DNA from: Phaeobacter porticola
GTDB lineage: Bacteria > Pseudomonadota > Alphaproteobacteria > Rhodobacterales > Rhodobacteraceae
Assembly (NCBI RefSeq): GCF_001888185.1
Contig: NZ_CP016369.1
Span: 1-52,819, forward strand
Reading direction: 5' to 3'
Length of the DNA stretch: 52,819 bases
Shown here piece after piece: positions 16,701 through 50,051 of the stretch. Made by a program: the position numbers and the translations under genes. The notes beneath the pieces were generated by a model. It did not search any database. It was not told where the DNA came from and saw only the letters and a program-made list of their open reading frames with translations. The number at the start of each line of letters is the position of its first letter. Position 1 is the first letter of the stretch.

Positions 16701-16817
16701 ACCACCATCGCCGGCGGACTTGTGGCGGCGACGCTGCTGACGCTGCTGGTCACCCCGGCGATGCTGGTGCTGGGGGACCGGCGCCGCGCGGATGGGGCTG
16801 ATGGCGCGCGGTGCTAA
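13704..16817 (+). CDS. RND-family efflux pump permease
   Basis: A 1037-residue inner-membrane proton/drug antiporter of the AcrB/HAE1 superfamily. It has the usual layout of one helix (residues 12-32), a large periplasmic loop, helices 2-6, a second loop and helices 7-12. The motif VVGMLVDGAIVTTEL in helix 4 carries one of the two Asp residues used for proton transfer in AcrB, with Gly in place of the second. Helix 10 shows LAGIVVNTNIVLIDTYNAQR, in which the position of the AcrB lysine appears changed, as in several RND subgroups. ATGA overlap with the adaptor gene shows coupling. Substrates cannot be read from sequence; the nearby AraC regulator could control it. Confidence 0.92.
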   Translation: MSGFLSVIFARSRAVILIFSGLLLGGAYAYVSIPKESSPEIPIPYVYVSTTLSGISPQDSERLLVKPLEAGLAGLADLKVLNANAYEGYANVTLEFDAGADVTEALDAVRVAVDQVRPDLPEAATEPVVMEINTALFPVLTTVLSGPVPERSLNRLARQLKDRLEAVSGILEVDIGGGRSDLLEVLIDPVAFVTYGLSFETLVGQINRNNAMIAAGAIDGAAGRFVLKVPGLISGPGDLMRMPVKVQDGTVVTLGDIAVVRRRFEDPRSFARINGQPALTLDITKRSGANIIETVAAAKAVIAAAQQQWPQSVKVDYLLDESREVKTMLGDLEANVIAAIVLVMLVVIYALGLRPALLVGLSIPGAFLTGVAVLWGMGITMNIVVLFSLILVVGMLVDGAIVTTELADRHLQDGASAAQAYRAAAQRMAGPLVSSTATTLSVFVPLLFWTGTTGEFMKFLPITVIVTLAASLVMALVFIPVLGGMIARRSPQSARAKRALHAAEHGDPRLGGGMAGVYARGLQRALLFPGTTVLLSLALLLGTFGLYGSFGAGLTFFPKVEPEFMQVQLRARDNFSIYERDALVRRVEDRLLETSGISSVYVVTTLGGGDDLDLIGTIQIELDPWDQRPPAAEIGAGIRANVADLPGVEVRVEIDDDGPSGDKPLDLHIMARDPAASEAAVVQIREIINRMGGFTDIADSRALPGVEWRIEIDRAEAARYGADLNLLGQAVQLLTHGVTVTTYRPDDVAGSVDVRVRFPAPDRSFDGLLALRVPTSAGLVPISNFTRFAPVPRSGAIQRRDQSRVLTLTGNVAPGLLADAQLANLRRALDETPLPDGVTWTFKGEAEEQDDAMRFLSLAFATAVMLMAVILIAQFNSFYQAAVVMSAIIFSIAGVLLGLMLAGRPFGVVMGGIGVIALAGIVVNTNIVLIDTYNAQRRAGQSPREAALRSGALRLRPVVLTALTTVLGLMPMVLGMKLDLLAGSMVFGAPSSQWWTELSTTIAGGLVAATLLTLLVTPAMLVLGDRRRADGADGARC

Positions 16818-19419: not shown

Positions 19420-19797
19420 AGGAAGTGGAGGCAAGGCGATGACGCTATTTAGAGGCTTGTTCACAAGGTGGTGTCTGATTTGATTGCTCACGGCCATCAT
19501 ATTGTATCGAACCTGTTTGTAGGTGTGTTCCGGGAAATTGTGCAGTTGCGGCATCTGGTCGCCTTGTCCTGTACGCGATGAGATGCCGGCCTTGTTTCAA
19601 CAGGCGGACCATTCTGAAAATGGTGATTTCCGTCTGCTTCGGCAGCGGAAAATTGCTCATCTTAGCGTTGTGTAAATTTCACAAAACTGCCGCTTGACGG
19701 ATGTTAACTATCCTGTAAGTTGCATGAAAACACGTGAAGGGCGAAGGAAACTTCACAACTAAACCTATTGAAATACTGCCAAAGGCTCCGTCACGTC
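19420..19797. other. Upstream region of the ATP-grasp cluster
   Basis: No gene is recognisable in these 378 bp. The stretch contains the palindrome at 19668-19684, a TTGACG at 19694-19699 that could be a -35 box, and a weak ribosome-binding site AAAGG near 19780. The first ATG of the cluster is at 19798. Confidence 0.5.
19668..19684. promoter_or_regulatory. Crp-like palindrome before the ATP-grasp cluster
   Basis: TTGTGTAAATTTCACAA is a perfect 5-bp inverted repeat with a 7-bp centre, similar to Crp/Fnr-family sites. It ends 9 bp before a TTGACG hexamer and 113 bp before the first gene. A factor bound here could control the cluster. The adjacent Crp/Fnr gene is broken, so another regulator would have to act. 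Confidence 0.55.
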
Positions 19798-21042
19798 ATG
19801 AAAATAATTCTGTTCGCACCGCCAAAAATCATTCTACAGCATAGTGTTACTGAATGGGTTGATGCAATCGGCCCGAACAGTGTGATCTTGACCTGTGCCA
19901 GTGCCAAGGACGCGCTGATGCGCCGCTTCTCTGATGGGCTGGATATTCGCTTCTTTCAAAATTTCAATGACAGCCCTGAGGTTGAGTTGGCAGCGATTGA
20001 TATCGCGCAGTCGCTGTCACAGCCCTTGTGTGTGGCGCTCGCGGAGATTGATGTGCTGCGGGCGGCGCGGGTGAATGACTACCTTGGACTGTCTGCAAAT
20101 GCTGCGGTGCAGCTAGAAATGTACCGCGACAAATACGCAATGAAGGCACGGGCCCAAGAGGCGGGGCTGCCGGTTAGCGAGATGGCGGTGGTCCGCAGCG
20201 CGATGGACATTCGCCGCTTTATCGACAGGTTGGGATATCCTGTGGTGTTAAAGCCGCGGGACGGGCGCGGCTCCAACGGTGTCTGTGTGATCCGGGGTGA
20301 TGCGGATTTGGCGGCCTGGCTGAAGACGCAGGACAGTTCCACCTTTTACAACACCATGATCGAACGGTTCGTTGCCGGAGATCATTATATCGTCAACGGG
20401 CTCTATGTGGCGGGACGGCCAATTATGATCTCGCCAGTTCGGGTGCTGACCTCTGCACTGGATTTTCTCGGCGGACGGTCACATGATCTGCATATGCTGG
20501 AGCCGACAACGCCTTTGCGTGACCGGCTGGTGGCCTACTCCCGCCGTCTGGTCGAGGAGGTGATGCCGTCGCCGCCAACCTTGCTGTTTCACCTTGAGGT
20601 GTTTGTTAGCCCGGATGGAACCATCATTCTGGGAGAGATCGCCTCGCGGCTGGGGGGCGTGTTCTTCAATCAGGAAATGACCGAGGCCTGGGGGATCGAT
20701 CCGCGCATGACCTTCCTGCGGGCGATGCAGGACCCAGAGTTTGAGCGAGCACCGGAGCCACAGATGATGGTGGAGCCGGTGCGGCTGGTTGGTCAGCTTT
20801 GTGTGCCGCCCCGCGAGGGCGTTTTGCAGAGCGTGCCAGAGAGTTGCCCGTTTGACTTTGTGCGGGCCTATCGGATGAGCGGCGTGGCCGGGAGACAGTA
20901 TGGTCAGATGGCTTTTACCAATGCGGAAATCCTGAACGCCATTGTGGAAGGGCATAGCGAGGCTGAATTGCGCGCCCGTCTGCGCCAGCTGGAGGATTGG
21001 TTCCACACCGCCTGCCAATGGGAAACCAGCGCCGCGGCCTGA
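19798..21042 (+). CDS. ATP-grasp ligase (first of two)
   Basis: A 414-residue carboxylate-amine/thiol ligase that would activate an acid as acyl phosphate and join it to an amine. The N-terminal Rossmann-like part begins MKIILFAPPK. The ATP-grasp fold shows the glycine loop VVLKPRDGRGSNGVCVI and metal-binding acidic residues in FHLEVFVSPDGTIILGEIASRLGG. No biotin-carboxylase or D-Ala ligase signatures beyond the fold are visible, so the substrate is open. The ATG at 19798 has AAAGG about 13 bases upstream. It opens a seven-gene plus-strand cluster; the next gene starts 47 bases after its stop. Likely role in the cluster is formation of an amide or peptide bond. Confidence 0.88.
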   Translation: MKIILFAPPKIILQHSVTEWVDAIGPNSVILTCASAKDALMRRFSDGLDIRFFQNFNDSPEVELAAIDIAQSLSQPLCVALAEIDVLRAARVNDYLGLSANAAVQLEMYRDKYAMKARAQEAGLPVSEMAVVRSAMDIRRFIDRLGYPVVLKPRDGRGSNGVCVIRGDADLAAWLKTQDSSTFYNTMIERFVAGDHYIVNGLYVAGRPIMISPVRVLTSALDFLGGRSHDLHMLEPTTPLRDRLVAYSRRLVEEVMPSPPTLLFHLEVFVSPDGTIILGEIASRLGGVFFNQEMTEAWGIDPRMTFLRAMQDPEFERAPEPQMMVEPVRLVGQLCVPPREGVLQSVPESCPFDFVRAYRMSGVAGRQYGQMAFTNAEILNAIVEGHSEAELRARLRQLEDWFHTACQWETSAAA

Positions 21043-21089
21043 CCGGTGGACCCATAAGAAAACCCAAGGCTCCAATAAGGATGTACTCC

Positions 21090-22511
21090 ATGAAGATCGC
21101 AGTTCTTGGCGCGGGCTATGCCGGTGTCTCTGTCCTGGAAAATCTGGTCGCCACTCTGCCTGATCTGTCGGTGCTCTCGGTGGATGTTTTTGACAAGAGC
21201 CGTAGCTTCGGGCCCGGCGTGGCCTATCAGGAAGATGCGGAGACCAATCTTCTCAACCGGCCTCTGAAGCTGATGTATCTGTCGCGCCGCAATGATTTCC
21301 GCGACTGGCTGGTGCAGATTGGCGCACGGGAGGCCGCAGCGGATGAGGACGGATTCTTGCAGCGCGCGCTGTTTGGGCGGTTCCTGCAAAACCGGTTTGA
21401 TGAACTGTGCGGCGCCGTGCGCGCTGCGGGTGGGCGGATCCGTATCATCGGGACCGAGGTGGAGGCGATCGCCCCCAGTCGCCGTCCCGACGCGCTTTAT
21501 CAGCTGTCCTGGGATAGCAGCGGATCTGATTATGACATGGTCTACCTGTGCCTTGGCACCAATCTGGAAGCCGATCCCTACGGGTTGAACGGCACGCCGG
21601 GCTATTTCCGTTCGCCTTATCCGGCGGCACGCCTTCAGGCATTGCAGCACCTGCGGGTGGGCATTCTGGGCTGTCGTCTAACCGCCTATGATGTGGCGCT
21701 TGGGGTGAATGGGCGTCAGATGCTGATGACCTCGCGCCGGGCGGGACTGCCCAAGGCGGTTACCGCCTATCGTCCGGTGACACTGCGCCACCTGACGGCG
21801 GACGGGTTGACGGCCTTGCGGGATGGCTGCGAGGACGGGCGTGTGTCGCTCTCGGCGGTGATGGATCTGTTTGAATCCGAGATGCAGCATCAGGGGGTTG
21901 ATGTCAGTTTTGCTGAGTTGCTGCGCGGCGTCGACAGTGCCGACAACGATCTGGTGTCGAGCATTCTGGCCGAGACAAACATGCTGATCCCGCAGCTTTG
22001 GGCCAGTCTGAGTGACCGCGCGAAGGCGACGTTCCTGCGCCATTTTCATCGGCTCTGGTCGAATATGCGGGTGCCGATCTCGCGCACCAATGCGGACCGG
22101 ATTGCGGATTTGCAGGCCAGCGGCGCGCTGAGCCACCGCAGTGGTCTGCGCGATGTCACCTTCCGCAATGGCTGTTATCGCATGGCATTTGCCGATGGCA
22201 CCGTCGAGGTGGACGCAGTGATCAATGCAACAGGGCTGCAACGGGGGCTGGACGAGGCGAATCCGCTGATCCGAAGCCTGCTGGAGCAAGGGTTTGCCGA
22301 ACGGGATGCAACCGGCGGCATCAAGGTGCAGTTGAAGGACTGTCGGGTCACCACCCGCGACGGGCGTCCGTCGCCTGGATTGTTTGCACTGGGCCAATTG
22401 ACCTGCGGAACCTTCTACATGGTCAACAATATTGACGTGATCCACCATCAGGCTCGGATTGCCACCCGCTCTGCGCTGTCCCCGGCTGTACCCTTACGGA
22501 GCGTGGGCTGA
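21090..22511 (+). CDS. FAD/NAD(P)-binding oxidoreductase (NAD_binding_9-like)
   Basis: A 473-residue flavoprotein-like enzyme. The N-terminal dinucleotide motif is GAGYAGVSVLENL, with FDKSRSFGPGVAYQEDAETNLLNRP next, typical of the FAD-NAD(P)-binding group that includes HcgC-like and hydroxylase-like proteins. A second nucleotide-binding loop, VGILGCRLTAYDVALG, and the closing motif VINATGLQRG support it. The ATG at 21090 is preferred because TAAGGA lies 8 bases upstream; the ATG at 21081 overlaps that sequence. It overlaps the next gene by one base. In the cluster it may oxidise an amine, hydroxyl or amino-acid side chain; the reaction is not predictable from sequence. Confidence 0.85.
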   Translation: MKIAVLGAGYAGVSVLENLVATLPDLSVLSVDVFDKSRSFGPGVAYQEDAETNLLNRPLKLMYLSRRNDFRDWLVQIGAREAAADEDGFLQRALFGRFLQNRFDELCGAVRAAGGRIRIIGTEVEAIAPSRRPDALYQLSWDSSGSDYDMVYLCLGTNLEADPYGLNGTPGYFRSPYPAARLQALQHLRVGILGCRLTAYDVALGVNGRQMLMTSRRAGLPKAVTAYRPVTLRHLTADGLTALRDGCEDGRVSLSAVMDLFESEMQHQGVDVSFAELLRGVDSADNDLVSSILAETNMLIPQLWASLSDRAKATFLRHFHRLWSNMRVPISRTNADRIADLQASGALSHRSGLRDVTFRNGCYRMAFADGTVEVDAVINATGLQRGLDEANPLIRSLLEQGFAERDATGGIKVQLKDCRVTTRDGRPSPGLFALGQLTCGTFYMVNNIDVIHHQARIATRSALSPAVPLRSVG

Positions 22512-23593
22512 TGCTTCGGAATTTTACGATCACTTTGCTGCTGGCCTGTGCCGGGTCAATCCTCGGCTATCTAAGCGGACTGCCATTGGGGCAGCTCCTT
22601 GGGGCGGCGGCGTTGGTACTGATTGCCTGTCGAATGGGCTTGGCGCTGGCCACACCGCCTGCGGCGATCGTAGTGATCCAGCTTATTCTGGGGGCCAGCG
22701 TCGGGGCGTTGCTTAATGCTGAGATGCTGCATGGGATGGCAGATCTGACGATCCTTGCGGGCTTGCTGATCTGCATGTCTGCGCAGCTGGTTGCCGGTTT
22801 TACATGGCTTTACCGGGTGGAGAAATGGACCCGCGCCGAGAGCCTCTTGGGGGCGGTGCCTGGCGCCATGGCGGCGGTGATGACCCTGACCGGCGAGGAA
22901 GGTAAGACATCGGCCAAGATGGTCTTTGCCCATATGGTGCGGATGATTGCACTGCTGGTTGCGGTGTTCCTGATTGCCGGTCCACAGGAGAGTTCGCAGG
23001 AAGTTGCCGCGCTGCCCGATGGGCCGGACGGCCGCGCCCTATGGGTTGGATATGTCGCCTTCCTACTGCTGGCGACCGGGGCCTATGTCGCGGGGCGCGT
23101 GCTGGAGAGGTTTGCCATGCCGGCACCCTATATGGTGACTGGGTTGATCCTCGCGGCGGGGGTGAACCTCTGGCTGGGCAGTGATCCGATTGTGGTGCCA
23201 GAGCCGCTGGTGCTGTTTGCCATGGCGCTGCTTGGCGGGCTGATCGGCATCCGGCTGAAGGATATCACCCGTCAGGATATCGCGAGCTACTTGCGGGCGG
23301 CGCTGATTGTTACCTCGATCACCTTTGGCATCACCGTGGTCATGGCGTTTGGCTTCAGCCTGCTGACCGGCCAACCGTTTCTGGTGCTGTTCATGTCCTG
23401 GGTGCCCGGCGGGGTAGAGGTCATGGTGGCAACCGCGCTGGCACTGGGGCTGGAACCTGCTTTTGTGATGCTGAACCATGTGTTGCGGATGTCGGTGCTG
23501 CATATCGCGCCGATGTTTATGAGCCGCGACTTCTTCCGGCCCGAACCACAGGATACTCAAACAACCAAACATGAGGGGGGCCGTCATGTCTGA
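22511..23593 (+). CDS. AbrB-family membrane protein (putative transporter)
   Basis: A 360-residue integral membrane protein with about 9-10 hydrophobic segments in two similar halves, the arrangement of the AbrB duplication family once annotated as putative ammonia monooxygenase. The conserved half-repeat features are visible: LLGAVPGAMAAVMTL in the first half and SWVPGGVEVMVATALALG in the second. The start overlaps the previous stop (TGATG) and the end overlaps the next gene by 8 bases, so it is embedded in the operon. Within a biosynthetic cluster the natural inference is export of, or resistance to, the product. Biochemical function of the family is poorly known. Confidence 0.85.
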   Translation: MLRNFTITLLLACAGSILGYLSGLPLGQLLGAAALVLIACRMGLALATPPAAIVVIQLILGASVGALLNAEMLHGMADLTILAGLLICMSAQLVAGFTWLYRVEKWTRAESLLGAVPGAMAAVMTLTGEEGKTSAKMVFAHMVRMIALLVAVFLIAGPQESSQEVAALPDGPDGRALWVGYVAFLLLATGAYVAGRVLERFAMPAPYMVTGLILAAGVNLWLGSDPIVVPEPLVLFAMALLGGLIGIRLKDITRQDIASYLRAALIVTSITFGITVVMAFGFSLLTGQPFLVLFMSWVPGGVEVMVATALALGLEPAFVMLNHVLRMSVLHIAPMFMSRDFFRPEPQDTQTTKHEGGRHV

Positions 23594-24773
23594 GCCTAAG
23601 CGCAATATCCTGATGATTGGCGGGCGTGACCACACCTTTGTCCGCATCGGTGACATGGGGCTGCGGTACAGCGCGCTTCAGATCCGCGCCCATCTGACCG
23701 ATCACCTGCTGGATCATGCCGAAACCGTCGTGGTGACGGATTATGAGGATATCGACAGCAGCGTGGCGCTGGCGCAGGCCCTGCATCGCAAGACGCCGTT
23801 TGATGCAGTGTTTTCCTTTGCCGAATATGGTTTTCTGACCGCCGCGCATATCGCTGAGGTGCTGAATCTGCCCAGCAATTGTCAGGTATCGACGGTGCAG
23901 CTGACCCGCAACAAGCGGCTGATGCGAGAGGCGCTACGCGCAAGCGGTATTAAGGATGTGCCCTTCGCCCGGGTGCGCTCTGCGGCGGAGATTGCCGATT
24001 TCGTGGCCCACCACGGCGAGTGTATTATCAAACCGGCAGAGGGCGGCGGCAGTGAGGGCGTCTATCTCGTCGATGCCACCACGGATATCAGCAGGGCGCT
24101 TGCCCATGCCGTGCAGGTGGGCCGCGACGAGCTGATCGCCGAGGCCTTCATACCCGGCCCGGAGTATAGCGTCGAAACCATGTCGGTCGAGGGTGCGCAC
24201 CGCATTCTGGCCGTCACCGAAAAAACCACAAGCGGAGCGCCATACTTCATTGAAAGCGGCCACGTCCAGCCGGCTGCCTTGAGTGCGGATGACGCCGCTC
24301 GCATTGGGGAGCGGGTCCGCGTATTGCTGGATGCTGTCGGCTACCGGACCGGGCCCGCCCATACGGAGGTCAAGCTGAACGACGGGGCGGTCCATGTGAT
24401 CGAGACCCAGACCCGCAATGGCGGCGACCAGATCTGGGAGCTAACCCTGGAGACCACCGGCGCGGATGTTTTTAAGGAAACTTTTGCCGCAGTTCTCGGG
24501 CTGGACTACAGCGCGCCACCCCCCGCCGCGCGGGCGATGGCGATCCGCTATATGTTGGCGCAGGACCGGGTGCTGGACGCCATCACCGGGCTGGATTGCG
24601 CTGCCCGCGCCGAGGGCGTGGCGCGTGTACAGTCGTCGGCCAAACCGGGCACGCGGTATGACGCGGTGCTGTCGGCCGCGTCGCGGGTGGCCTATGTTCT
24701 GGCACGCGGCGACAGCCGGGAACAGGCGCTGGCCCATGCCGAAGCAGCCGTTGCCCAGATTGAACTGAGGTGA
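23586..24773 (+). CDS. ATP-grasp ligase (second of two)
   Basis: A 395-residue ATP-grasp enzyme, closer to the ATP-grasp_4 group of dipeptide and amide ligases than the first one. It has the glycine-rich loop CIIKPAEGGGSEGVYLV, the lid region LIAEAFIPGPEYSVETMS and the metal site GPAHTEVKLNDGAVHVIETQTRNGGD. These motifs are all complete, so it should be active. The ATG at 23586 follows GAGGGGGG and overlaps the AbrB gene. Two different ligases in one cluster suggest two successive acyl activations, or one peptide bond and one conjugation with an unknown acid. Confidence 0.9.
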   Translation: MSEPKRNILMIGGRDHTFVRIGDMGLRYSALQIRAHLTDHLLDHAETVVVTDYEDIDSSVALAQALHRKTPFDAVFSFAEYGFLTAAHIAEVLNLPSNCQVSTVQLTRNKRLMREALRASGIKDVPFARVRSAAEIADFVAHHGECIIKPAEGGGSEGVYLVDATTDISRALAHAVQVGRDELIAEAFIPGPEYSVETMSVEGAHRILAVTEKTTSGAPYFIESGHVQPAALSADDAARIGERVRVLLDAVGYRTGPAHTEVKLNDGAVHVIETQTRNGGDQIWELTLETTGADVFKETFAAVLGLDYSAPPPAARAMAIRYMLAQDRVLDAITGLDCAARAEGVARVQSSAKPGTRYDAVLSAASRVAYVLARGDSREQALAHAEAAVAQIELR

Positions 24774-24846
24774 TCCGGCAGCATCGCGCAGCACGCCCCC
24801 TTCTAATTTCATCCCTTATCCCTGATCCATGACAAGGAGCCAGACC

Positions 24847-25887
24847 ATGGCCATTGCCATTCACGACCCGACTCTGCGCGACGGTAACCACGCCATTGCC
24901 CACACGCTCAGTCTTGATGATATCGCTGCCTATTGCCGGACCGTTGATGACTGCGGGCTGGATGTGGTTGAGGTTGGACATGGCAACGGACTGGGGGCGT
25001 CCTCCCTGCAGCTGGGGATGGCGCGCCATGCGGATCACGAGATGCTAGAGACCGCCCGCGCGAATCTGACCCACACTAAACTGGGTATTCACGCGATTCC
25101 GGGTTTTGCCAAGATCTCTGACATCAAGGCCGCAATTGATATTGGTGTCGATGTGTTTCGCATTGCCTCACATTGCACTGAGGGCGATCTGACTCAAAGC
25201 TATATCGAATACGCCCGCAGTCAGGACAAATGTGTGCAGGGCGTGCTGATGATGACCCATATGGCGCCGGCGGAGGTGCTGCTAGCGCAGGCGCAGCGGC
25301 AGGTCTCCTATGGCGCAAACGCCATTGTCCTGATGGATTCCGCAGGCAATTACGACCCGCGCGACACAAGCGAGAAGATTGGCCTGCTGGCCGCTGAACT
25401 GGAGGTGCCGGTTGGGTTCCATGCCCACAACAATCTGGGCCTTGCGATTGCCAATTCCGTTGCTGCCGCCGAAGCGGGCGCAACCATATTGGATGGCACC
25501 ATGCGTGGGTTTGGGGCCGGTGCCGGCAATACCCAGCTGGAGGTGCTCTGCGCGGTGTTGGAACGCTACGGGTTTGAGATCAGCACCGATGTTTTTGCGC
25601 TCTGTGAGGCGGTGGAGGCACTGCTGGAGCTGCCGCCGGTGCAGCGACGCACGATTGTGGGAACCTCCAATCTGATCAGCGGCATCTATGGCGTCTGCGC
25701 CGGGTTTGAGAAACATGTGACCCGCGCCGCACAGGATTTTGGTGTCGCGCCCCGTTTCATCTACGAGGAATTGTCGCGCTGCAACGCCGTTGCGGGGCAA
25801 GAGGATCTGATCATCTCGACTGCGGCGCGCCTGTCCAAATCTACGCCGCAACCATCGACGCAACCGCGTGAAGGAGTGACGACATGA
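24847..25887 (+). CDS. 4-hydroxy-2-oxovalerate aldolase-like enzyme (HMGL/DRE-TIM family)
   Basis: A 346-residue class II aldolase similar to MhpE/BphI. The catalytic signature IHDPTLRDGNHAI at the N-terminus holds Arg11, Asp12 and His15. Metal ligands HAH occur at about residues 192-194 (GFHAHNNLGLAIANS), and VLMDSAGNY precedes them. The family cleaves 4-hydroxy-2-oxo acids to pyruvate and an aldehyde, and can run in the synthetic direction. AAGGAG precedes the ATG by 7 bases. The next gene overlaps by 4 bases and encodes the usual channel partner dehydrogenase. No meta-cleavage pathway genes (hydratase, hydrolase, dioxygenase) are nearby, so a biosynthetic role is more likely than aromatic degradation. 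Confidence 0.92.
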   Translation: MAIAIHDPTLRDGNHAIAHTLSLDDIAAYCRTVDDCGLDVVEVGHGNGLGASSLQLGMARHADHEMLETARANLTHTKLGIHAIPGFAKISDIKAAIDIGVDVFRIASHCTEGDLTQSYIEYARSQDKCVQGVLMMTHMAPAEVLLAQAQRQVSYGANAIVLMDSAGNYDPRDTSEKIGLLAAELEVPVGFHAHNNLGLAIANSVAAAEAGATILDGTMRGFGAGAGNTQLEVLCAVLERYGFEISTDVFALCEAVEALLELPPVQRRTIVGTSNLISGIYGVCAGFEKHVTRAAQDFGVAPRFIYEELSRCNAVAGQEDLIISTAARLSKSTPQPSTQPREGVTT

Positions 25888-26795
25888 CCCTGAGAACCGC
25901 CATTATCGGCAGCGGAAATATCGGCTGTGACGTGTTGTGCAAGGTGCAGCGCTCAGCTCTGCTGGATTGCACATTGTTTGCAGGGCGCAATGCGGCCTCG
26001 CCGGGGTTGGCATTGGCCCGCACACGGGGCGTTCCGGTGACGGATCGCGGCGCCGAGGGGCTGTTTGCTGCGCTCGACACCTTTGATCTGGTGTTTGACG
26101 CTACATCCTCGGCCGCGCATCAGGCTCATGCGCCGATGCTGGAAGCGGCGGGCAAGGTGGTGGTCAATCTGACCCCGGCCCCCAATGGCGCGCTCTGCGT
26201 GCCGTCGCTGAATGGCGATGATCTGCTGACGGCCCGCAATATCAACATGATCACATGCGGCGGTCAGGCCTCAATCCCGATCGCGCAGGCGATGACAGAG
26301 GCCAACCCGGATATCCATTACGTTGAGGTGGTCTCGTCAATCAGCGCTGAAAGCGCGGGACCGGCAACACGGTTGAACCTCAATCACTATATCGAAACCA
26401 CTGAAAGCGCGCTGAGGCAGTTCACCGGCTGCTCCAACGTCAAAGCGATCTTGAATATCAACCCGGCCAAGCCGAACGTGTATATGCAAACCGCGATATC
26501 GGCGCTGGCGGCGCAGCATGATCTGGCAGCGACTGAGGCAGCCATCGCCAAAGCGGTGACACAGCTGCGGGCGGCTGTGCCAGGCTATGACGTGATTGTC
26601 GAGCCGCATGTCACCGGCGACCGGCTGTTCACGATGGTGCGGGTGACCGGCGCCGGTGATTACCTGGATCCGTCAGCTGGTAATCTGGACATTATCACAG
26701 CTGCGGCCACAAGGATGGCCGAAGCGATCGCCCGTGGTCGGGGCAAGCGAAAGGCTCCTCCGGCGGAGGCATTGCCGATGGAGAGTGTGGCGTGA
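25884..26795 (+). CDS. Acylating acetaldehyde dehydrogenase-like enzyme (MhpF/BphJ family)
   Basis: A 303-residue NAD-dependent enzyme that interconverts acyl-CoA and aldehyde, normally in a channelled complex with the aldolase. The dinucleotide loop AIIGSGNIGCDVL and the catalytic Cys125 in NMITCGGQASIPIAQAM are intact. ETTESALRQFTGC and LNINPAKPNVYMQTAI match the family core. Length is normal. The 4-base overlap with the aldolase gene fits the tight coupling of this pair. In a biosynthetic setting it would reduce an acyl-CoA and hand the aldehyde to the aldolase; the chain length of the acyl group is unknown. Confidence 0.92.
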   Translation: MTLRTAIIGSGNIGCDVLCKVQRSALLDCTLFAGRNAASPGLALARTRGVPVTDRGAEGLFAALDTFDLVFDATSSAAHQAHAPMLEAAGKVVVNLTPAPNGALCVPSLNGDDLLTARNINMITCGGQASIPIAQAMTEANPDIHYVEVVSSISAESAGPATRLNLNHYIETTESALRQFTGCSNVKAILNINPAKPNVYMQTAISALAAQHDLAATEAAIAKAVTQLRAAVPGYDVIVEPHVTGDRLFTMVRVTGAGDYLDPSAGNLDIITAAATRMAEAIARGRGKRKAPPAEALPMESVA

Positions 26796-26852
26796 TGTAT
26801 TACCTGGAGAGCCGCCCGGATGTTCCCGTCCGCATGGTTGAGGGAGGGCGTG

Positions 26853-28112
26853 ATGCCTGACCTCGCCACGGCACATCGCAACACTCCGTTCTGTCCTATC
26901 TTGGAGCTGGCGGGCCGCATCCAGTCGCGGGACAAGCCGGTAGTGGATTTCTCTATCGGGGTGCCAAATTTCACGCCGCCGCAGCGGGTCTATGACGCCG
27001 CCATTGCTGCTATCCATGCGGATCAGTGCCGCTATGGTCCCAGCCGCGGGGAGGCGGGGCTGATCGCCGCCTATCTGCACTATTTGGCGCAGTTGGGACA
27101 GGATCACTTTGGCCCGGTGAACATTGCCGTGGGGCAGGGGGGCAAACATCTGCTCTATTCGCTGTTTCAGGTGCTATTTGAACCCGGTGATACCGTGGTC
27201 ATTCCCGCGCCCTGCTGGCCGACCTATTTTGACATCGCAAGACTGAGCGGGGTTGCAGTGCGCACCCCTTACTGTGGGTTGCATCAGGGTTACAAACTGG
27301 ACCCGGCGACGCTGGAGGCGGCGCTGAGGGGGCGGGTTGTGGCGCTCGTGTTGAACAACCCATCTAACCCCACTGGTGCGCTCTATAGCCAGGCGGAGCT
27401 GGCGGCCCTGGCCGATGTACTGCGCCGCCACGATGTCTGGATCATCAGCGACGATGTTTACCAGCGGTTTGTCTACACGGATGAGCCCTGTCCGCATCTG
27501 CTGGATGTTGCCCCGGATCTGGCTTCCCGGATCATCAAGGTGGACAGCATTTCAAAGCTTTACGGGATGCCGGGGTGGCGTGCCGGGTTGTTGGCTGCGC
27601 CGCCTGAGGTGGCAGAGGCTGTAACGGTGCTGAACAGCAATTCAATTTCCAACATGCCGCCCATGGTTGCCGCCGCGGCAGCCGCGGCACTTGGCGGCGA
27701 TCAGGGCTTTTCGCAGCAGATGACGCACGGCTATCAGGCCCGGCGGGACATCCTGTTGACCGCCTTTGACAGTGCGCCGCAGATCCGCTGCGCCCGCCCC
27801 GGCGGTGCGTTTTACCTGTTTCCTGACATTTCACGGGTGTTCGGGTCCATGCACGGCAAGCAAATGATCAGCACGGATGAGGATCTTTGCAATCTGCTGC
27901 TGGAAGATTACGGCGTCGCGGCTGTGCCTGGGCGTCACTTCGGAGCGCCGGACAATATCCGCCTGTCCTATGCGATTGATGCGGATCAAGTCAAAACGGG
28001 CGCGCGTCAGATTTTGCGGTGTCTGGCAGAGCTGGAAGAAAAGCCAAGAACCACACGGCAGACCCAACCTGGATCAGAGGCACGGGTGCCAGTGATGGAG
28101 GTGGTTTCCTGA
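26853..28112 (+). CDS. PLP-dependent aminotransferase, class I/II
   Basis: A 419-residue fold-type I aminotransferase. The PLP lysine is about Lys235 in DSISKLYGMPGWRAG. Other signatures are VGQGGKHLLYSLFQ, LNNPSNPTGALYS, IISDDVYQRFVY and the closing arginine in NIRLSYAID. GGAGGG lies 8 bases before the ATG at 26853. It ends the cluster, 57 bases after the dehydrogenase gene, and a large hairpin follows. The expected role is to convert the 4-hydroxy-2-oxo acid made by the aldolase into a gamma-hydroxy alpha-amino acid. Sequence alone does not fix the substrate. Confidence 0.92.
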   Translation: MPDLATAHRNTPFCPILELAGRIQSRDKPVVDFSIGVPNFTPPQRVYDAAIAAIHADQCRYGPSRGEAGLIAAYLHYLAQLGQDHFGPVNIAVGQGGKHLLYSLFQVLFEPGDTVVIPAPCWPTYFDIARLSGVAVRTPYCGLHQGYKLDPATLEAALRGRVVALVLNNPSNPTGALYSQAELAALADVLRRHDVWIISDDVYQRFVYTDEPCPHLLDVAPDLASRIIKVDSISKLYGMPGWRAGLLAAPPEVAEAVTVLNSNSISNMPPMVAAAAAAALGGDQGFSQQMTHGYQARRDILLTAFDSAPQIRCARPGGAFYLFPDISRVFGSMHGKQMISTDEDLCNLLLEDYGVAAVPGRHFGAPDNIRLSYAIDADQVKTGARQILRCLAELEEKPRTTRQTQPGSEARVPVMEVVS

Positions 28113-28114
28113 CA

Positions 28115-28153
28115 GATCTGCGATGGGCAGGCTTCCTGCCCGTCGCCCAGATC
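28115..28153 (+). terminator. Large stem-loop at the end of the biosynthetic cluster
   Basis: GGGCAGG (28125-28131) pairs with CCTGCCC (28135-28141) over a CTT loop, and GATCTG (28115-28120) pairs with CAGATC (28148-28153) outside it. It starts 2 bases after the aminotransferase stop. There is no T run, so it may end transcription weakly or protect the 3' end. Confidence 0.55.
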
Positions 28154-28529
28154 GGTTGTCCTATTCTAGTCACGTTAGGCCAGTTGTGTCGGTCCTGAAG
28201 CAGCCGGGCGTTGGTACTATGGACCCAGCTCAAGACACGGTGATCGCCTGCCAGACCAATAGCGACCATCTCGGCTTCGAACACCTGAATTGGGCGCTCT
28301 CGGGTGCTGCCTTCGAATTTACAGTAATATAGCGGCGCACGGCGTTTCTGGATCAGATCCTGGATGTCAGGAGGCGCGGTTTATGTGCGTTCCGCAGTCG
28401 CTTAGCCAGCCACCAACAGCGGTCTGAATGTTGGCCGCCGCCGTGTGGGCCGCTGCACGCACCACACCGGCTTCTATACTCCGCGCTGCCTCCGGTTGGA
28501 GACCTGAGGCCTCTTCCCACTGACGCCAG
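28154..28529. other. Intergenic region with a possible gene fragment
   Basis: A minus-strand open stretch at about 28145-28345 reads in part APLYYCKFEGSTRERP and EAEMVAIGLAGDHRVL, which looks more protein-like than neighbouring frames, but it has no start and no family I recognise. It may be the remnant of a deleted gene at the boundary between the biosynthetic cluster and the glycine module. No RNA gene or IS end is visible. Confidence 0.35.
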
Positions 28530-29573
28530 CTACATCGCTCGGGTTTCGACTTGGGTGGTTTCCGACTGACGGAACCGGCGAGGGCGCATGGTTTCCGGGG
28601 CAACCCCGCGAAAGGCGCTGCGGCGAATGACATCCGGCGAATGGCCATAGGTCTCGCGGATATGCTGGCTAAGGCTCTGATAGCTGCCAAATCCGGTGGC
28701 GACCGCGACTTGACGTATCGGAATATCGGTCTGGGTCAGCAGCTGATGGGCGCGCTCCACCCGTAGCGCGCGATAAACACTGAGCGGTGAGCGGTCGAAA
28801 TGGCGGGTAAAGCGGCGTTGCAGGCAGCGGGTGGAGACATTGAGCGCTGCGGCCAGTTCGGCAACCGACAGGGGCACTTCGATATGATCCTGCATCACCG
28901 CCAGCGATTGCGAAATCAGCTGATCACCAGCGGATTTCTGTTCCAGATTGAGCGCAATGCGGCTCTTGATGGGGCGTTTGCCGGTATCAAGGCCAAGGTA
29001 ATGCGCCATTCCGTCGGCGGCAAGACGTCCGCAATCAGTAGCGATGATGTCCAGTAACATCCGTGGAATCGCAAATCCGCTGATCGCGGAATGAACTGAA
29101 CCGGAGATGGCGGTCGCCGCACCATTTTTATCCTGTCGCAGGCTGCATTCGCCCGCTGAGGCCAGGAAATTCGGATGGATCGCCAGATCATGATCCTGAC
29201 CACGCGCCAGCGCATCTAGCAAAAACACAGCCCCCCCAACAAAGGCGCTGCGATCGGCAAGCCGCATCACCTGATTGACGCGGGCGCGTTCTTTGGCATC
29301 CAGCTGCCAGCGGGTGTGAATGTCGCCGAGAAAAATGACCAATCTACGGGGCCGGGCAACCGCAGAGTCGCAGGACAACATGTCCAGCCCGCAGACGCGC
29401 ACTCTATACTGCACCTCATCCAAAAGATCGTTTGCGGCCTGAAACAGGTCGGTGACAATCTGTGCGCTTGACCGGGGTGCGCCTTCGGGCAGGATCACGT
29501 CGATATGGCGCAGCTGGCGGCCTTGGGCGAGAGCAAAGCCGGTGTCGCTGTAGCGGGGAGAATACTGGGTCAT
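28530..29573 (-). CDS. GlxA-like AraC-family regulator
   Basis: A 347-residue regulator with an N-terminal DJ-1/PfpI-like amidotransferase fold (about residues 18-190, from RHIDVILPEGAPRSSAQIV to AISGFAIPRMLLDIIAT) and a C-terminal AraC HTH domain (about 230-325, LSVAELAAALNVSTRCLQRRF and VAVATGFGSYQSLSQHIRE). GlxA-type regulators often control metabolism of glycine betaine derivatives, carnitine or amino acids. It follows gcvP by 92 bases on the same strand and could regulate or be part of the glycine module. The ATG at 29573 has GAGAGGCAG just upstream; a longer reading from 29648 lacks such a site. Confidence 0.88.
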   Translation of the reverse strand: MTQYSPRYSDTGFALAQGRQLRHIDVILPEGAPRSSAQIVTDLFQAANDLLDEVQYRVRVCGLDMLSCDSAVARPRRLVIFLGDIHTRWQLDAKERARVNQVMRLADRSAFVGGAVFLLDALARGQDHDLAIHPNFLASAGECSLRQDKNGAATAISGSVHSAISGFAIPRMLLDIIATDCGRLAADGMAHYLGLDTGKRPIKSRIALNLEQKSAGDQLISQSLAVMQDHIEVPLSVAELAAALNVSTRCLQRRFTRHFDRSPLSVYRALRVERAHQLLTQTDIPIRQVAVATGFGSYQSLSQHIRETYGHSPDVIRRSAFRGVAPETMRPRRFRQSETTQVETRAM

Positions 29574-29665
29574 CTGTCTGCCTCTCGTACGGTGGTGACG
29601 TGGATGGGTCCGGGCAGGGGCGCCGCCGACGGATCGGCGACGCCTCATGTTTTAGGGAGCAGGGG

Positions 29666-32521
29666 TTATTCTGCGTCCTCTGCGTAATCCTCCATCGGAG
29701 GGCAGGTGCAGATCAGGTTGCGATCGCCATAGGCGTTGTCGACGCGGTTCACCGCCGGCCAGTATTTATCAACACCAAGGTTACCCGGAGGGAAGCAGGC
29801 CTGCTCGCGCGAATAGGGGCGATCCCACTCACCGACCAGATCGCGCACAGTGTGCGGTGCGTGCTTCAGCGGGTTGTTTTCGGCATCAATCTTACCGTCG
29901 ATGATATCCTGTGCTTCCGAACGGATGGACAGCATAGCCTCGCAGAAGCGGTCCAGCTCGTCCTTGGGTTCGGATTCCGTCGGCTCCACCATCAGGGTGC
30001 CTGCGACCGGCCAGGACATGGTCGGTGCGTGGAACCCGCTGTCGATCAGACGCTTGGCCACATCGTCCACGCTGACTCCGGCCTCGGTGTCGAGGGGGCG
30101 GGTGTCCAGAATGCACTCATGCGCAACCCGGCCTGTGGTCGAGGTGTAGAGGATCGGATAAGCATCCTTCAGGCGCGCTGCGATATAGTTGGCGTTGAGA
30201 ATTGCCACCTTGGTTGCCTGAGTCAGGCCTCCGCCACCCATCAGCAGGATATAAGCCCAGCTGACCGGTAGGATCGAGGGCGAACCGAACGGCGCCGCCG
30301 ACACCGGACCCACGGCGGTGCCGTATTCCGGGTGACCTGGCAGGTGCTCTATCAGATGCGCCTTGACGCCAATCGGACCCATGCCGGGGCCACCACCACC
30401 ATGCGGAATGCAGAAGGTCTTGTGCAGGTTCAGGTGGCTGACGTCACCGCCAATGTCACCCGGACGAGACAGACCCACCATTGCGTTCATGTTGGCGCCG
30501 TCGATGTACACCTGACCGCCGTGATCATGGGTGATCTGGCAGACCTCTTGCACGGTTTCTTCAAACACGCCGTGGGTAGAGGGGTAGGTGATCATGCAGC
30601 CCGCAAGATGGTCAGAATGCTTCTCTGCCTTTTCGCGGAAATCTGCGACATCAATGTTGCCATCTTCGTCAGCTTTGATCGGAACCACTTTCCAGCCAAC
30701 CATCTGTGCGGAGGCAGGATTGGTGCCGTGGGCCGACGTGGGGATCAGGCAGACATTGCGATGCGCCTGGCCACGCGATGCGTGGTAGCCGCGAATGGTC
30801 AAAAGGCCTGCGTATTCACCCTGCGCACCAGAGTTCGGCTGCTGGGAAATCGCGTCATAGCCGGTGATCTGGCACAGCTTGTCGTTCAGATCGTCGATCA
30901 TCTGGTGGTAACCCTGCGCCTGATCTTCGGGAACGAAGGGGTGCAGGTTACTGAATTCCGGCCAGGTGACCGGGATCATTTCGATGGTCGCGTTCAGCTT
31001 CATGGTGCAGGAGCCAAGCGGGATCATCGCGCGGTCCAGCGCCAGATCGCGGTCGGCCAGACGGCGCATGTAGCGGGTGATCTCTGCTTCGGCCCGGTTC
31101 TTGTGGAAGATCGGGTGCGTGAGATACGCGCTGTCGCGCAGCATGGCTTCGGGCAGACGGTACTGCTTGTTGGAGCTGTCGTCCTTGCGTTCGATGCCAA
31201 AAGCACCCCAGACGGCCTCGATGGTTTCGGGGCGGGTCTGTTCGTCCAGCGAGATACCAACCTTGGTTTCGCCGACGCGGCGCAGGTTGATGCCCCGCTG
31301 CACAGCGGCTTCCATGACGGTTTTTTGCAGGTGACCAACTTCGACGGTGATGGTGTCAAAAAAGACTTCCGGCTCAACCTTGAACCCGGCCTCTTCCAGA
31401 CCAGCCGCCAGACGCGCAGTCTTGCGGTGGACGGACTGGGCAATCGCCTTGATGCCATCGGGGCCGTGGTAGACGGCATACATCGATGCGATCACCGCCA
31501 GCAGCGCCTGTGCAGTACAGACGTTGGAGTTGGCTTTTTCGCGGCGGATGTGCTGTTCGCGTGTTTGCAACGACAGGCGATAGGCCTTGTTGCCACGCGC
31601 GTCGATGGACACACCAATGATCCGGCCGGGCATGGAGCGTTTCAGCTTGTCGCTGGTCGCCATATAAGCCGCGTGCGGGCCGCCGTAGCCCATGGGAACG
31701 CCAAATCGCTGGGTGGAGCCGATGGCGATATCTGCGCCCATTTCACCGGGGGGTTTCAGCAGCGCCAGCGACAGGATGTCGGCGGCCACAACTGCGATGC
31801 CCTTGTGTTCGTGCAGGGCGGCGATCTGGTCGCTGAAGTCGGTGACGTGACCATGGGTGCCGGGATACTGGAAGATCGCGCCAAAGACGGCGCCCGCGTC
31901 CAGCTCTGCCGGTTCGGCAACCACAACATCGATGCCCAGAGGCTCGGCGCGGGTCTTGATCACGGCGACGGTTTGCGGGTGGCAGTTCTTGTCCACGAAG
32001 AAGGCCGCGTTATTCGCCTTGGAGCGCGACCCACGATGGGCCATCGCCATGGCTTCGGCGGCGGCAGTGGCTTCGTCGAGCAGCGAGGCATTGGCCACCG
32101 GCAGGCCGGTCAGATCGCTGACCATGGTCTGGAAGTTCAACAGCGCCTCAAGACGGCCCTGCGAAATCTCGGGCTGGTAGGGCGTGTAAGCCGTGTACCA
32201 GGCGGGGTTTTCCAGAATATTGCGCAGGATCGGCGCGGGCGTGGTGGTGCCGTGGTAGCCCTGGCCGATCAGGGAGGTCAGGACCTTGTTCTTGCCCGCG
32301 ATCTCTTTCATGTGGAAGAGCGCATCGCGTTCGGTCATCGCCGAACCCCAGTCCAGCGCCTCTTTCTGGCGGATGGCAGGCGGCACGGTGGCGTCGATCA
32401 GCTCATCGAGGGTGTTGAAGCCGATCACCTTCAGCATATCAGCCATTTCACGCGGGCTTGGCCCGATGTGGCGGCGATTGGCAAAGTCGTAGGCTTCGTA
32501 ATCAGTCAGTTTGAAGGCCAT
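29666..32521 (-). CDS. gcvP: Glycine dehydrogenase (decarboxylating), P protein
   Basis: A 951-residue, single-chain P protein of the glycine cleavage system. It decarboxylates glycine on PLP and passes the aminomethyl group to the lipoyl arm of H protein. The start [20 protein letters not shown] is typical. The PLP lysine lies in [20 protein letters not shown], and both halves of the ancestral duplication are complete ([37 protein letters not shown]). It is the last gcv gene of the minus-strand run lpdA-lipA-symporter-gcvT-gcvH-gcvP. The spacer to gcvH contains two stem-loops. Confidence 0.97.
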
Positions 32522-32545
32522 GGGAATGTCCTAATTCGTGGTGGT

Positions 32546-32567
32546 CCCGCCGGACCATACCGGCGGG
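32546..32567 (-). other. Stem-loop in the gcvH-gcvP spacer
   Basis: CCCGCCGG (32546-32553) pairs with CCGGCGGG (32560-32567) around ACCATA. A second GC-rich dyad (CGGGCC...GGCCCG) lies at about 32584-32611. Neither is followed by T residues. They may adjust the relative amounts of H and P protein messages by processing or partial termination. Confidence 0.5.
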
Positions 32568-32621
32568 TAATCAAGGGAGGGATCGGGCCAGCACGACAGC
32601 CGGCCCGGCCCATCAGCAGGA

Positions 32622-32987
32622 TCAGCCGATCAGGGCCTTGTAGCCGTCCAGATCCATCAGATCTTCCAGCTGGGCGCTGTCGGAGAGCTTGATCTTGTAG
32701 ATCCAGGCCGCGCCTTCGGGGTCTTCGTTCAGGGCGCTGGGGTTGTCGGCCAGATCTTCGTTCACGGCGGTGATTTCACCATCCAGAGGCGCGTAGATTT
32801 CCGACGCCGCTTTCACCGATTCAATGACGCCGATCTCGCCGCCTTTTTCGAATTCTTCACCGCTGTCCTGCTGCTCGACAAAGACAACTTCGCCCAGCTG
32901 ATCAGCCGCGTGTTTGGTGATGCCGAGCGTGGCGGTGTCGCCCTCGACGGTGATCCATTCGTGATCTTCGGAATAATAGGTGGTCAT
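32622..32987 (-). CDS. gcvH: Glycine cleavage system H protein
   Basis: A 121-residue lipoyl carrier. The lipoylated lysine is Lys59 in GVIESVKAASEIYAPLDG, and the N-terminal YYSEDHEWITVEGDTATLGI is diagnostic. It carries the aminomethyl group between P and T proteins and is reoxidised by dihydrolipoyl dehydrogenase. It starts 18 bases after the gcvT stop, so the two are co-transcribed. A dedicated lipA gene for lipoyl insertion lies in the same run of genes. Confidence 0.97.
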   Translation of the reverse strand: MTTYYSEDHEWITVEGDTATLGITKHAADQLGEVVFVEQQDSGEEFEKGGEIGVIESVKAASEIYAPLDGEITAVNEDLADNPSALNEDPEGAAWIYKIKLSDSAQLEDLMDLDGYKALIG

Positions 32988-33005
32988 CTCGGGTACTCCT
33001 GGAGC

Positions 33006-34103: not shown

Positions 34104-34139
34104 AGCGTCTTGCCCTTGAATTGGAGTGTGAAAGGAACC

Positions 34140-34163
34140 GGGGCGCGACGCCTGCCGCGCCCC
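34140..34163 (-). terminator. GC-rich hairpin between symporter gene and gcvT
   Basis: GGGGCGCG (34140-34147) and CGCGCCCC (34156-34163) form a perfect 8-bp stem, 18 bp past the symporter stop. On the minus strand only short T runs follow, so read-through into gcvT is likely. Confidence 0.5.
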
Positions 34164-34181
34164 GATGTAGATTGATTTTGG

Positions 34182-35558: not shown

Positions 35559-35707
35559 ATTTTTCCTCCCTTTAGGTGGTATTCTCTGGCCTTAGATTGC
35601 CTGTCCCAGCCTTTGCTGCGGTTCGCGACCGGTGACAAGTCGTTTTCTGGGTTCCGCCCCTCCTGCCGCGACCGACCAGCCGCGGGGCAGACCCCAAATG
35701 CGGGGAT

Positions 35708-36676: not shown

Positions 36677-36713
36677 CTGGGGTACCTCCTCAGGGCGAGA
36701 GATCGGACAGCGA

Positions 36714-38096: not shown

Positions 38097-38150
38097 AATC
38101 TGCCCTCCAGTTTGTCTGTCAGGGAACATATGTCCCTAACTCTCCCGCGA

Positions 38151-47670: not shown

Positions 47671-47687
47671 CACCCTTGTCCTGAGCC

Positions 47688-47720: not shown

Positions 47721-47742
47721 GTTATGCAACTCTCAGATCCGA

Positions 47743-50051
<2,309 letters not shown>

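What the first reader, a model, noticed from the sequence alone, without database searches (positions are those of the whole stretch)
19798..28112. Seven-gene candidate pathway to an unknown gamma-hydroxy-amino-acid amide
The sequence shows two complete ATP-grasp ligases, an FAD/NAD-binding oxidoreductase, an AbrB-type membrane protein, a DRE-TIM aldolase, its partner acylating aldehyde dehydrogenase and a PLP aminotransferase, on one strand with overlaps or short spacers. In aromatic degradation the aldolase-dehydrogenase pair sits with meta-cleavage genes, which are absent. Established knowledge: nikkomycin biosynthesis uses an acylating dehydrogenase and a related aldolase to build a 4-hydroxy-2-oxo acid, then an aminotransferase, and an ATP-grasp enzyme joins the peptide bond. 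The inference is that this cluster makes a small peptide-like metabolite containing a 2-amino-4-hydroxy acid.
Basis: partly seen in the sequence, partly recalled or inferred. Interest (0 to 1): 0.88.

Follow-up and report, generated by a model that had tools for sequence, protein, structure and literature searches.

The report
Plasmid cassette for γ-hydroxy-amino-acid peptide
Seven neighbouring genes on a plasmid of the marine bacterium Phaeobacter look like a transferable assembly line that builds an unusual amino acid and couples it into a small compound, using an aldolase that differs from its pollutant-degrading cousins at the residue known to set stereochemistry; the product itself has not been seen.

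Summary
The seven genes are real, intact and at the stated coordinates. The window is a whole 52,819-base contig with plasmid genes, from a Phaeobacter-genus genome. The same cassette lies on four Leisingera and five P. piscinae plasmids and in another genome of the genus; five copies read in detail show three different gene contexts, and all seven genes are under purifying selection. This clade lacks the aldolase tyrosine (BphI Tyr290) that enforces 4S stereochemistry; our copy has Leu87 changed too, the two positions changed in laboratory variants switched to 4R. Ligase 1 is NikS-like; in Photobacterium its relative sits beside a transporter and an FAD relative. Best reading: a biosynthetic cassette for a small, probably N-oxygenated, di- or tripeptide-like metabolite with a 2-amino-4-hydroxy acid. 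Product unknown; nikkomycin enzymes could not be compared directly.

The parts
19537..28210 (+). Conserved unit: upstream region plus seven genes (outer limits of the shared block)
   Evidence: One continuous match to Leisingera sp. M527 (8,688 columns, 87.3%), NJS201 (8,606, 86.9%), P. piscinae P14 (8,619, 83.9%) and G075 (8,434, 81.7%; starts at 19645); three different contexts among these five copies
19668..19683 (+). Candidate operator: dyad TTGTG-N7-CACAA just upstream of a TTGACG -35-like box, kept with small changes in four copies
   Evidence: Alignment of upstream regions; 1 match in the window, 0.08 expected; only zero-mismatch match in the genome, though matches with up to 2 mismatches (5) are few and close to the control (3). 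Role inferred; the generic promoter scan did not list a promoter here
19798..21042 (+). LIG1: NikS/RizA-like ATP-grasp amino-acid ligase (RizA name recalled)
   Evidence: PF13535/PF02222; nearest solved chain 4wd3 L-amino acid ligase, E 3e-10; 12 of 40 listed plasmid hits annotated NikS protein, of 94 records matched
21081..22511 (+). FAD: PF13454 class-B-type flavoprotein, predicted amine N-oxygenase
   Evidence: PF13454 E 1e-23; profile best PDB match 8cp2, L-aspartate N-hydroxylase, E 3e-18, two segments
22511..23593 (+). ABRB: AbrB-duplication membrane protein, predicted transporter (export inferred)
   Evidence: PF05145 E 1e-48; TIGR03082 over cut-off; the Photobacterium locus with LIG1 and FAD relatives has an MFS transporter between them
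23571..24773 (+). LIG2: L-amino-acid ligase (LAL) ATP-grasp with LAL_C2 domain
   Evidence: PF13535, PF18603, PF18130 over cut-offs; nearest solved chain 3vot BL00235, E 3e-28
24829..25887 (+). ALD: DmpG-type pyruvate aldolase of the clade outside the degradation-type pairs; Tyr291 (DmpG) replaced by Cys, Leu88 by His
   Evidence: TIGR03217; residue tables; tree
25884..26795 (+). ADH: acylating aldehyde dehydrogenase partner of ALD
   Evidence: TIGR03215; GSGNIG and TCGGQA (Cys) motifs in four copies
26820..28112 (+). AT: class I/II PLP aminotransferase (start may be 26853, matching the annotated starts in L006 and L008)
   Evidence: PF00155 E 8e-63; SISK and RLSYA motifs in three copies; nearest chromosomal paralogue 36%

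Best explanation
A plasmid-borne, transferable biosynthetic cassette. Inferred order: ADH runs in reverse and reduces a short acyl-CoA (acetyl- or propionyl-CoA) to its aldehyde; ALD adds pyruvate (or 2-oxobutyrate) to give a 4-hydroxy-2-oxo acid, with relaxed or inverted (4R) stereochemistry compared with degradative enzymes; AT aminates it to a 2-amino-4-hydroxy acid (for example 4-hydroxynorvaline); FAD N-oxygenates an amino group of this or of a partner amino acid; LIG1 and LIG2 make one or two amide bonds; ABRB moves the product across the membrane. Shown here: gene content, conservation as a unit, purifying selection, the clade of ALD/ADH, the active-site changes, the family of FAD and of the ligases. 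Inferred: direction, substrates, stereochemistry, N-oxygenation, export, product.
For: Seven genes kept as a unit in three different contexts and under purifying selection. ALD/ADH lie with Streptomyces-type, Paraburkholderia and Rhizobium pairs, apart from 34 degradation-type pairs, 100/100; neighbours in that clade include KAS III, ACP, NRPS, aminotransferase and carbamoyltransferase genes. Tyr291 is Y in 35 of 35 degradation-type rows (DmpG counted) and in 0 of 15 of the other clade; BphI variants at the two matching positions lose or invert stereospecificity (PMC3962088, passages). The FAD profile matches the L-aspartate N-hydroxylase best in PDB. LIG1, MFS and FAD relatives are adjacent in Photobacterium sp. 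GJ3. Relatives of LIG1 and of LIG2 lie in one gene run in seven other loci (L035, L036, L038, L040, L120, L121, L122; the two types cross-match, so this sorting is by best match). LIG2's best match outside the cassette lies in a Streptomyces hirsutus cluster with a SidA-family monooxygenase.
Against: No product or expression data. ALD and ADH still pass the cut-offs of the equivalog models named for the degradative enzymes, and both reactions are reversible (recalled). Six of the ten clade-mates keep an FAH-family gene related to DmpE/DmpH, and L072 has no plain biosynthetic neighbours. AT matches aspartate-transaminase models best but below cut-off, and also GntC, a PLP cyclodehydratase, so its reaction is open. 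FAD has Ala for the Asp-binding Arg13 and Arg where the NAD(P)H motif normally has Gly; single-sequence PDB search is weak (E 0.002); its tree is poorly resolved and 8cp2 is not near it; FAD relatives occur in varied settings, and none of the FAD relatives found in 398 phylum genomes has another cassette gene in the flank looked at. The ligases' relatives also occur without aldolases.
Confidence: 0.55

Rival explanations
1. Nikkomycin-like dipeptide route without N-oxygenation: ALD/ADH/AT make the 2-amino-4-hydroxy acid, LIG1/LIG2 join it to other amino acids, and FAD is a dehydrogenase or C-oxidase (for example 4-hydroxy to 4-oxo).
For: NikS-named relatives of LIG1; FAD's NAD(P)H motif is altered and its nearest relatives are not clearly N-oxygenases.
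Against: The best PDB profile match is an amino-acid N-hydroxylase; the other 16 PDB sequences at E 0.01 are monooxygenases and, at the weak end, three thioredoxin- or ferredoxin-NADP-type reductases.
Confidence: 0.25
2. Catabolic module: AT deaminates an imported 4-hydroxy amino acid, ALD cleaves the keto acid and ADH converts the aldehyde to acyl-CoA; ABRB imports; the ligases are incidental or act on an intermediate.
For: Reversible enzymes; an AraC regulator whose best NCBIfam match is GbdR (choline metabolism, far below cut-off) and glycine-cleavage genes lie next door in this window.
Against: Those neighbours are not part of the conserved unit. ALD is outside the degradation-type clade and lacks its tyrosine. 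Two conserved ATP-grasp ligases have no evident place in catabolism.
Confidence: 0.08
3. Ordinary meta-cleavage tail (4-hydroxy-2-oxovalerate aldolase and acetaldehyde dehydrogenase of aromatic degradation) beside unrelated genes.
For: Equivalog HMM cut-offs for both enzymes are passed.
Against: No meta-pathway neighbours recognised in the window; gene order ALD-ADH, while all 34 degradation-type pairs are ADH-ALD (but so are nine of the ten clade-mates); separate clade; cassette conserved as seven genes.
Confidence: 0.03

Closest known systems
Nikkomycin pathway (NikA/NikB/aminotransferase/NikS; roles recalled, not read here)
   Same: Acylating dehydrogenase plus pyruvate-type aldolase plus aminotransferase make a 4-hydroxy amino acid; an ATP-grasp ligase makes the amide bond
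   Different: No nucleoside gene or acyl-CoA ligase recognised among the 26 window ORFs scanned; a second LAL-type ligase, a PF13454 flavoprotein and an AbrB protein are added; marine Alphaproteobacteria; NikA/NikB sequences not compared
DmpFG/BphIJ bifunctional aldolase-dehydrogenase
   Same: Both subunits; Arg17, Asp18, His21, His200 and His202 (DmpG numbering; metal and catalytic roles partly recalled); dehydrogenase Cys
   Different: Own clade; Tyr291 to Cys, Leu88 to His, and 20 further clade-marking columns; gene order ALD-ADH; no meta-pathway genes
Rhizobium lusitanum p_1 locus L073 (no annotation in the record; described here)
   Same: ALD-ADH in the same order (50%, 49%) with MFS and PLP aminotransferase genes
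   Different: Carbamoyltransferase, FemAB-like, HpcH, OCD and SDR genes; no match to the ligases or FAD at E 1e-8; its aminotransferase is not a close relative
L-aspartate N-hydroxylase FzmM/CreE family (8cp2)
   Same: Profile-level homology over the FAD domain and a C-terminal segment; Asn62 kept
   Different: Remote; shorter (476 against 601 aa), Arg13 absent, no nitrosuccinate lyase recognised among the ORFs scanned
L-amino acid ligases BL00235 (3vot) and 4wd3
   Same: ATP-grasp family, LAL_C2 domain in LIG2
   Different: Remote; substrates unknown

Membership tests
Degradative 4-hydroxy-2-oxovalerate aldolase (DmpG/BphI) | TIGR03217 over cut-off and residues R17, D18, H21, H200, H202 | tested here: met
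   334 against 286 bits; residues
Degradative 4-hydroxy-2-oxovalerate aldolase (DmpG/BphI) | Stereo-controlling Tyr (BphI 290, DmpG 291) and membership of the degradation-type clade | tested here: not met
   Cys in 5 of 5 cluster copies, Y in 35 of 35 degradation-type rows; clade split 100/100
Meta-cleavage pathway | Hydratase, decarboxylase, semialdehyde dehydrogenase, hydrolase or tautomerase neighbours | tested here: not met
   No match of five NAH7 proteins in the window at E 1e-6; 23 of 29 alphaproteobacterial loci do show DmpE/DmpH relatives
Acylating acetaldehyde dehydrogenase (DmpF type) | TIGR03215 over cut-off, NAD motif and catalytic Cys | tested here: met
   319 against 282 bits; motifs
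L-amino-acid ligase (LIG2) | ATP-grasp_4, ATPgrasp_N and LAL_C2 domains | tested here: met
   All over gathering score
NikS-type ligase (LIG1) | Closest relatives are NikS-type proteins | tested here: inconclusive
   12 of 40 listed hits carry the name NikS, at 28-31% identity; no characterised NikS compared
L-aspartate N-hydroxylase (FzmM/CreE) | Homology over FAD and C-terminal domains | tested here: met
   Profile E 3e-18, two segments
L-aspartate N-hydroxylase (FzmM/CreE) | Arg cluster that binds Asp (Arg13 tested) | tested here: not met
   Ala at that place; the other Arg lie outside the aligned segments and were not tested
L-aspartate N-hydroxylase (FzmM/CreE) | N-hydroxylating activity | not testable with these tools
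   Needs enzyme assay
Nikkomycin-type pathway | Aldolase-dehydrogenase-aminotransferase-ligase set | tested here: met
   that this set defines the pathway is recalled
Nikkomycin-type pathway | Orthology to NikA/NikB and nucleoside genes | not tested
   Nik sequences could not be fetched; no nucleoside gene recognised among 26 window ORFs scanned

The most novel reading that the evidence does not exclude
The cassette makes a new class of marine small-peptide metabolite that carries an N-oxygenated amine and a (4R)-2-amino-4-hydroxy acid, built by a naturally stereo-switched pyruvate aldolase: evolution changed in this copy the same two positions (BphI 87 and 290) that protein engineers changed to invert BphI, and a whole clade of aldolase-dehydrogenase pairs has left aromatic degradation to supply chiral building blocks to biosynthetic clusters.
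Probability: 0.28. Interest if true: 0.78.

Novelty: new variant of a known kind. Interest (0 to 1): 0.6.

Why it matters
If true, Phaeobacter and Leisingera share a mobile antibiotic-like or signalling pathway besides those already known, with no carrier-protein or NRPS gene inside the conserved unit, so core-enzyme rules of genome-mining tools may miss it. It also predicts that a clade of aldolase-dehydrogenase pairs annotated as degradative is in fact biosynthetic, with one diagnostic residue (Tyr290 lost) that can be used to re-annotate them, and it gives enzymes of possible use for 4R-hydroxy acids.

Tried and rejected
Structure of FAD: AlphaFold2 from the single sequence gave mean pLDDT 33, useless, so no fold search was made; a viral-contig scan for relatives found none. 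A genome-contig scan with LIG2 gave two distant ligases only, not followed. FAD relatives: 19 of 398 phylum genomes, own included; none of the loci tested shows another cassette gene (short flanks, about 9 kb each side for four of them, L080-L083); Pfam was run for L080 (beside PAPS-reductase and CysN/C-type genes) and L081 (beside CoA-transferase and similar genes) only. LIG1 relatives: 18 of 398 phylum genomes, own included; five regions were fetched and ten ORFs of three of them scanned; L119 is a 6.7-kb contig with an aldo/keto reductase and a 2OG oxygenase. Anti-phage defence: 0 of 7 proteins matched PADLOC. Aspartate N-hydroxylase with nitrous-acid release: rejected as a membership claim, because Arg13 is not kept and no lyase was recognised. 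Literature: six searches were aimed at the cassette or its kind; the listings (1, 1, 0, 15 of 17, 20 of 75 and 15 of 37 papers, titles and starts of abstracts seen) and passages of PMC11595833 showed no description of it; other listed papers were not opened and most subscription journals are not held. Searches were for single points. Nikkomycin genes: no route to an Actinomycetota genome was found.
Full report
What is there. Seven + strand genes fill 19798-28112 as described. I call them LIG1, FAD, ABRB, LIG2, ALD, ADH and AT. Family models: LIG1 ATP-grasp; FAD PF13454; ABRB PF05145/TIGR03082; LIG2 ATP-grasp with LAL_C2; ALD TIGR03217 and ADH TIGR03215, both over their cut-offs; AT PF00155. 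Motifs expected for activity are present: KPxxGxGS and an acidic site in both ligases, Cys in ADH, SISK and RLSYA in AT (their meaning is recalled).

Where it lies. The window is the whole of contig C6, 52,819 bases, of a 4.2-Mb, six-contig genome; it carries a Rep3 initiator and ParA/ParB-type proteins. G298 of the same genus has LIG1 at the coordinates of P. piscinae P14 plasmid pP14_c, so I take the genus to be Phaeobacter. LIG1 is found in 3 of 7 genomes of the genus, own included, and FAD in 2 of 295 genomes drawn from the family at E 1e-30, own included.

A transferable unit. Of 72,556 plasmid records, nine carry it: four Leisingera and five P. piscinae (the tool may leave out records very near the window's own). 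Eight match the block in one piece; the ninth, NZ_CP080278, is cut by the record's start. Gene order was read in three records and by tblastn in G075. Contexts: the two Leisingera records read share their downstream flank (92.9% over 11.7 kb) but not the upstream one; P. piscinae P14 and G075 share flanks on both sides; the window's immediate flanks match neither. So the five copies show three contexts, not five. Upstream genes are a sterol desaturase (M527), an RbbA/HlyD set (NJS201) or hmpA (P14). The shared block spans window 19537 to 28210 at most. The window's copy is nearer to Leisingera (87.3% and 86.9%) than to P14 (83.9%) and G075 (81.7%) of its own genus, while the katG-multicopper-oxidase part of the plasmid is 90.9% and 87.8% identical to P14 and G075; this points to exchange of the cassette between genera. 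dN/dS (NG86) lay between 0.05 and 0.14 in all 18 comparisons: window against M527 and P14 for all seven genes, and against G075 for LIG1, FAD, LIG2 and ADH; G075's ABRB, ALD and AT and all of NJS201 (whose FAD and ABRB are split) were not used. A dyad, TTGTG-N7-CACAA, lies upstream of a -35-like box in four copies.

Degradative or biosynthetic? I took ALD and ADH from five cluster copies, ten pairs that I chose among the 18 best listed non-orthologous plasmid hits (H150-H167; the other eight were not read), five plasmid pairs chosen as degradation-type references (NAH7, pWW53, Rhodococcus, Geobacillus, Pontibrevibacter) and the 29 loci given by the alphaproteobacterial search. One search found 39 of 385 genomes, own included, with a match at E 1e-60; matches without a locus were not used. 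In the tree of 49 rows the cluster and the ten pairs form one side of a branch with 100/100 support and the 34 others the other side. The program warns of long branches (L072, L073, L090, L076), so the exact sisters (L072/L073, 100/98) are less sure than the split. In 23 of the 29 alphaproteobacterial loci a DmpE/DmpH relative lies within the short flank; in six it does not, so 'degradation-type' is partly inferred for those. Of the ten clade-mates, L074 and L075 lie beside KAS III, ACP, NRPS and aminotransferase genes, L077-L079 beside KAS III, ACP, CoA-ester lyase, MaoC and GNAT genes, L076 and L093 beside part of that set; six of the ten (L076-L079, L092, L093) keep an FAH-family relative of DmpE/DmpH; L092 has no annotation and was not studied further; the Paraburkholderia locus L072 lies beside an SDR, a carboxymuconolactone-decarboxylase-family and a TPP enzyme. 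L073 in Rhizobium lusitanum reads FemAB-like, MFS, ALD, ADH, carbamoyltransferase, PLP aminotransferase, HpcH, then OCD and SDR, a partial independent parallel for the aldolase-dehydrogenase-aminotransferase module. Gene order is ALD-ADH in the five cluster copies and L073, ADH-ALD in the other 43.

Active site of ALD. Twenty-one columns separate the two clades. The sharpest is DmpG Tyr291 (BphI Tyr290): Y in 35 of 35 degradation-type rows (DmpG included), F in ten and C in five of the other clade. DmpG Leu88 (BphI Leu87) is His in all five cluster copies and in L072/L073, Phe in seven Streptomyces-type rows and Leu in L076. A review (PMC3962088, passages seen) reports that BphI Y290F/Y290S lose stereochemical control and that L87N/Y290F and L87W/Y290F use only the 4R form; L89A admits longer aldehydes. 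In our ALD position 89 is Ile, which argues for a short aldehyde. His and Cys are not the residues tested there, so a relaxed or 4R-selective aldolase with acetyl- or propionyl-CoA as source is my inference. Phe139 to Val (15 of 15) might widen the donor pocket for 2-oxobutyrate; that is a guess.

The FAD protein. A single-sequence PDB search is weak (8cp2, E 0.002); a profile of seven rows (four cluster copies and three relatives) gives 8cp2 at 3e-18 as best hit, then flavin-containing monooxygenases, in two segments. 8cp2 is the L-aspartate N-hydroxylase of Streptomyces sp. V2 that makes nitrosuccinate (PMC10404684: outline with abstract, passages and the structure section seen). Our protein keeps the Asn aligned with Asn62 but has Ala for Arg13, so aspartate is unlikely to be the substrate. 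In the NAD(P)H motif it and the Photobacterium and Thioclava relatives have Arg where the other rows aligned have Gly or Ser. The tree is poorly resolved: ours sits with L124, L125, L039, L126, L016 and L015 apart from the other PF13454 rows (82/84), and the partial 8cp2 row is distant from all. N-oxygenation is therefore the leading, not the proven, role.

Ligases and company. LIG1's nearest solved chain is an L-amino acid ligase (4wd3); twelve of forty listed plasmid hits are named NikS. In three Streptomyces plasmids read, a LIG1-type gene lies in one run with two LIG2-type ligases, a serine acetyltransferase and a cysteine-synthase-like gene. In Photobacterium sp. GJ3 the LIG1 relative (29%), an MFS transporter and a PF13454 protein (26%) are adjacent: ligase, transporter and flavoprotein, as in our LIG1-FAD-ABRB. 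This is why I read ABRB as a transporter of the product. The best plasmid match of LIG2 outside the cassette, 36%, lies in a Streptomyces hirsutus cluster with a SidA-family monooxygenase and a class I tRNA-ligase-like gene.

AT. Best NCBIfam model is an aspartate transaminase (286 bits, cut-off 617); GntC, a PLP enzyme acting on a gamma-hydroxy amino acid, also matches (199 bits, cut-off 415). A transaminase is likeliest; a PLP cyclisation of a 4-hydroxy amino acid is possible.

Verdict. Biosynthetic cassette: about 0.85. A 2-amino-4-hydroxy acid from ALD/ADH/AT: about 0.65. Amide bond(s) by LIG1/LIG2: about 0.65. N-oxygenation by FAD: about 0.45. 4R or relaxed aldolase: about 0.45. The product is unknown.

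Noticed in passing
window 28530-38129: AraC regulator whose best NCBIfam model is GbdR (below cut-off), then gcvP, gcvT, a sodium:alanine symporter and a lipoamide-dehydrogenase-like gene on the minus strand: plasmid-borne glycine-cleavage genes; the AraC-gcvP part is about 83% identical to the P. inhibens plasmids listed.
   Followed up: partly
window 47687-52741: katG and multicopper-oxidase region shared with P. piscinae pP14_c at 90.9%, in a different place relative to the cassette.
   Followed up: partly
window 39719-44896: 1,725-aa protein with DUF4347 and nine RTX-type calcium-binding stretches.
   Followed up: no
window 12307-16817: HlyD-like adaptor and AcrB-type RND efflux pump upstream of the cassette, outside the conserved unit.
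   Followed up: no
L080:9413-11884: FAD relative with about 340 extra C-terminal residues without a Pfam match, next to PAPS-reductase and CysN/C-type genes.
   Followed up: partly
L073:7357-18568: Unannotated Rhizobium lusitanum cluster: FemAB-like, MFS, aldolase, dehydrogenase, carbamoyltransferase, aminotransferase, HpcH, OCD, SDR.
   Followed up: partly
   Followed up: no
L007:13557-16058: FAD and ABRB genes are each split in Leisingera sp. NJS201; whether by real frameshift or sequencing error is open.
   Followed up: no
window 19668-19683: Dyad TTGTGTAAATTTCACA upstream of the cassette, kept with small changes in four copies; only zero-mismatch match in the genome.
   Followed up: partly
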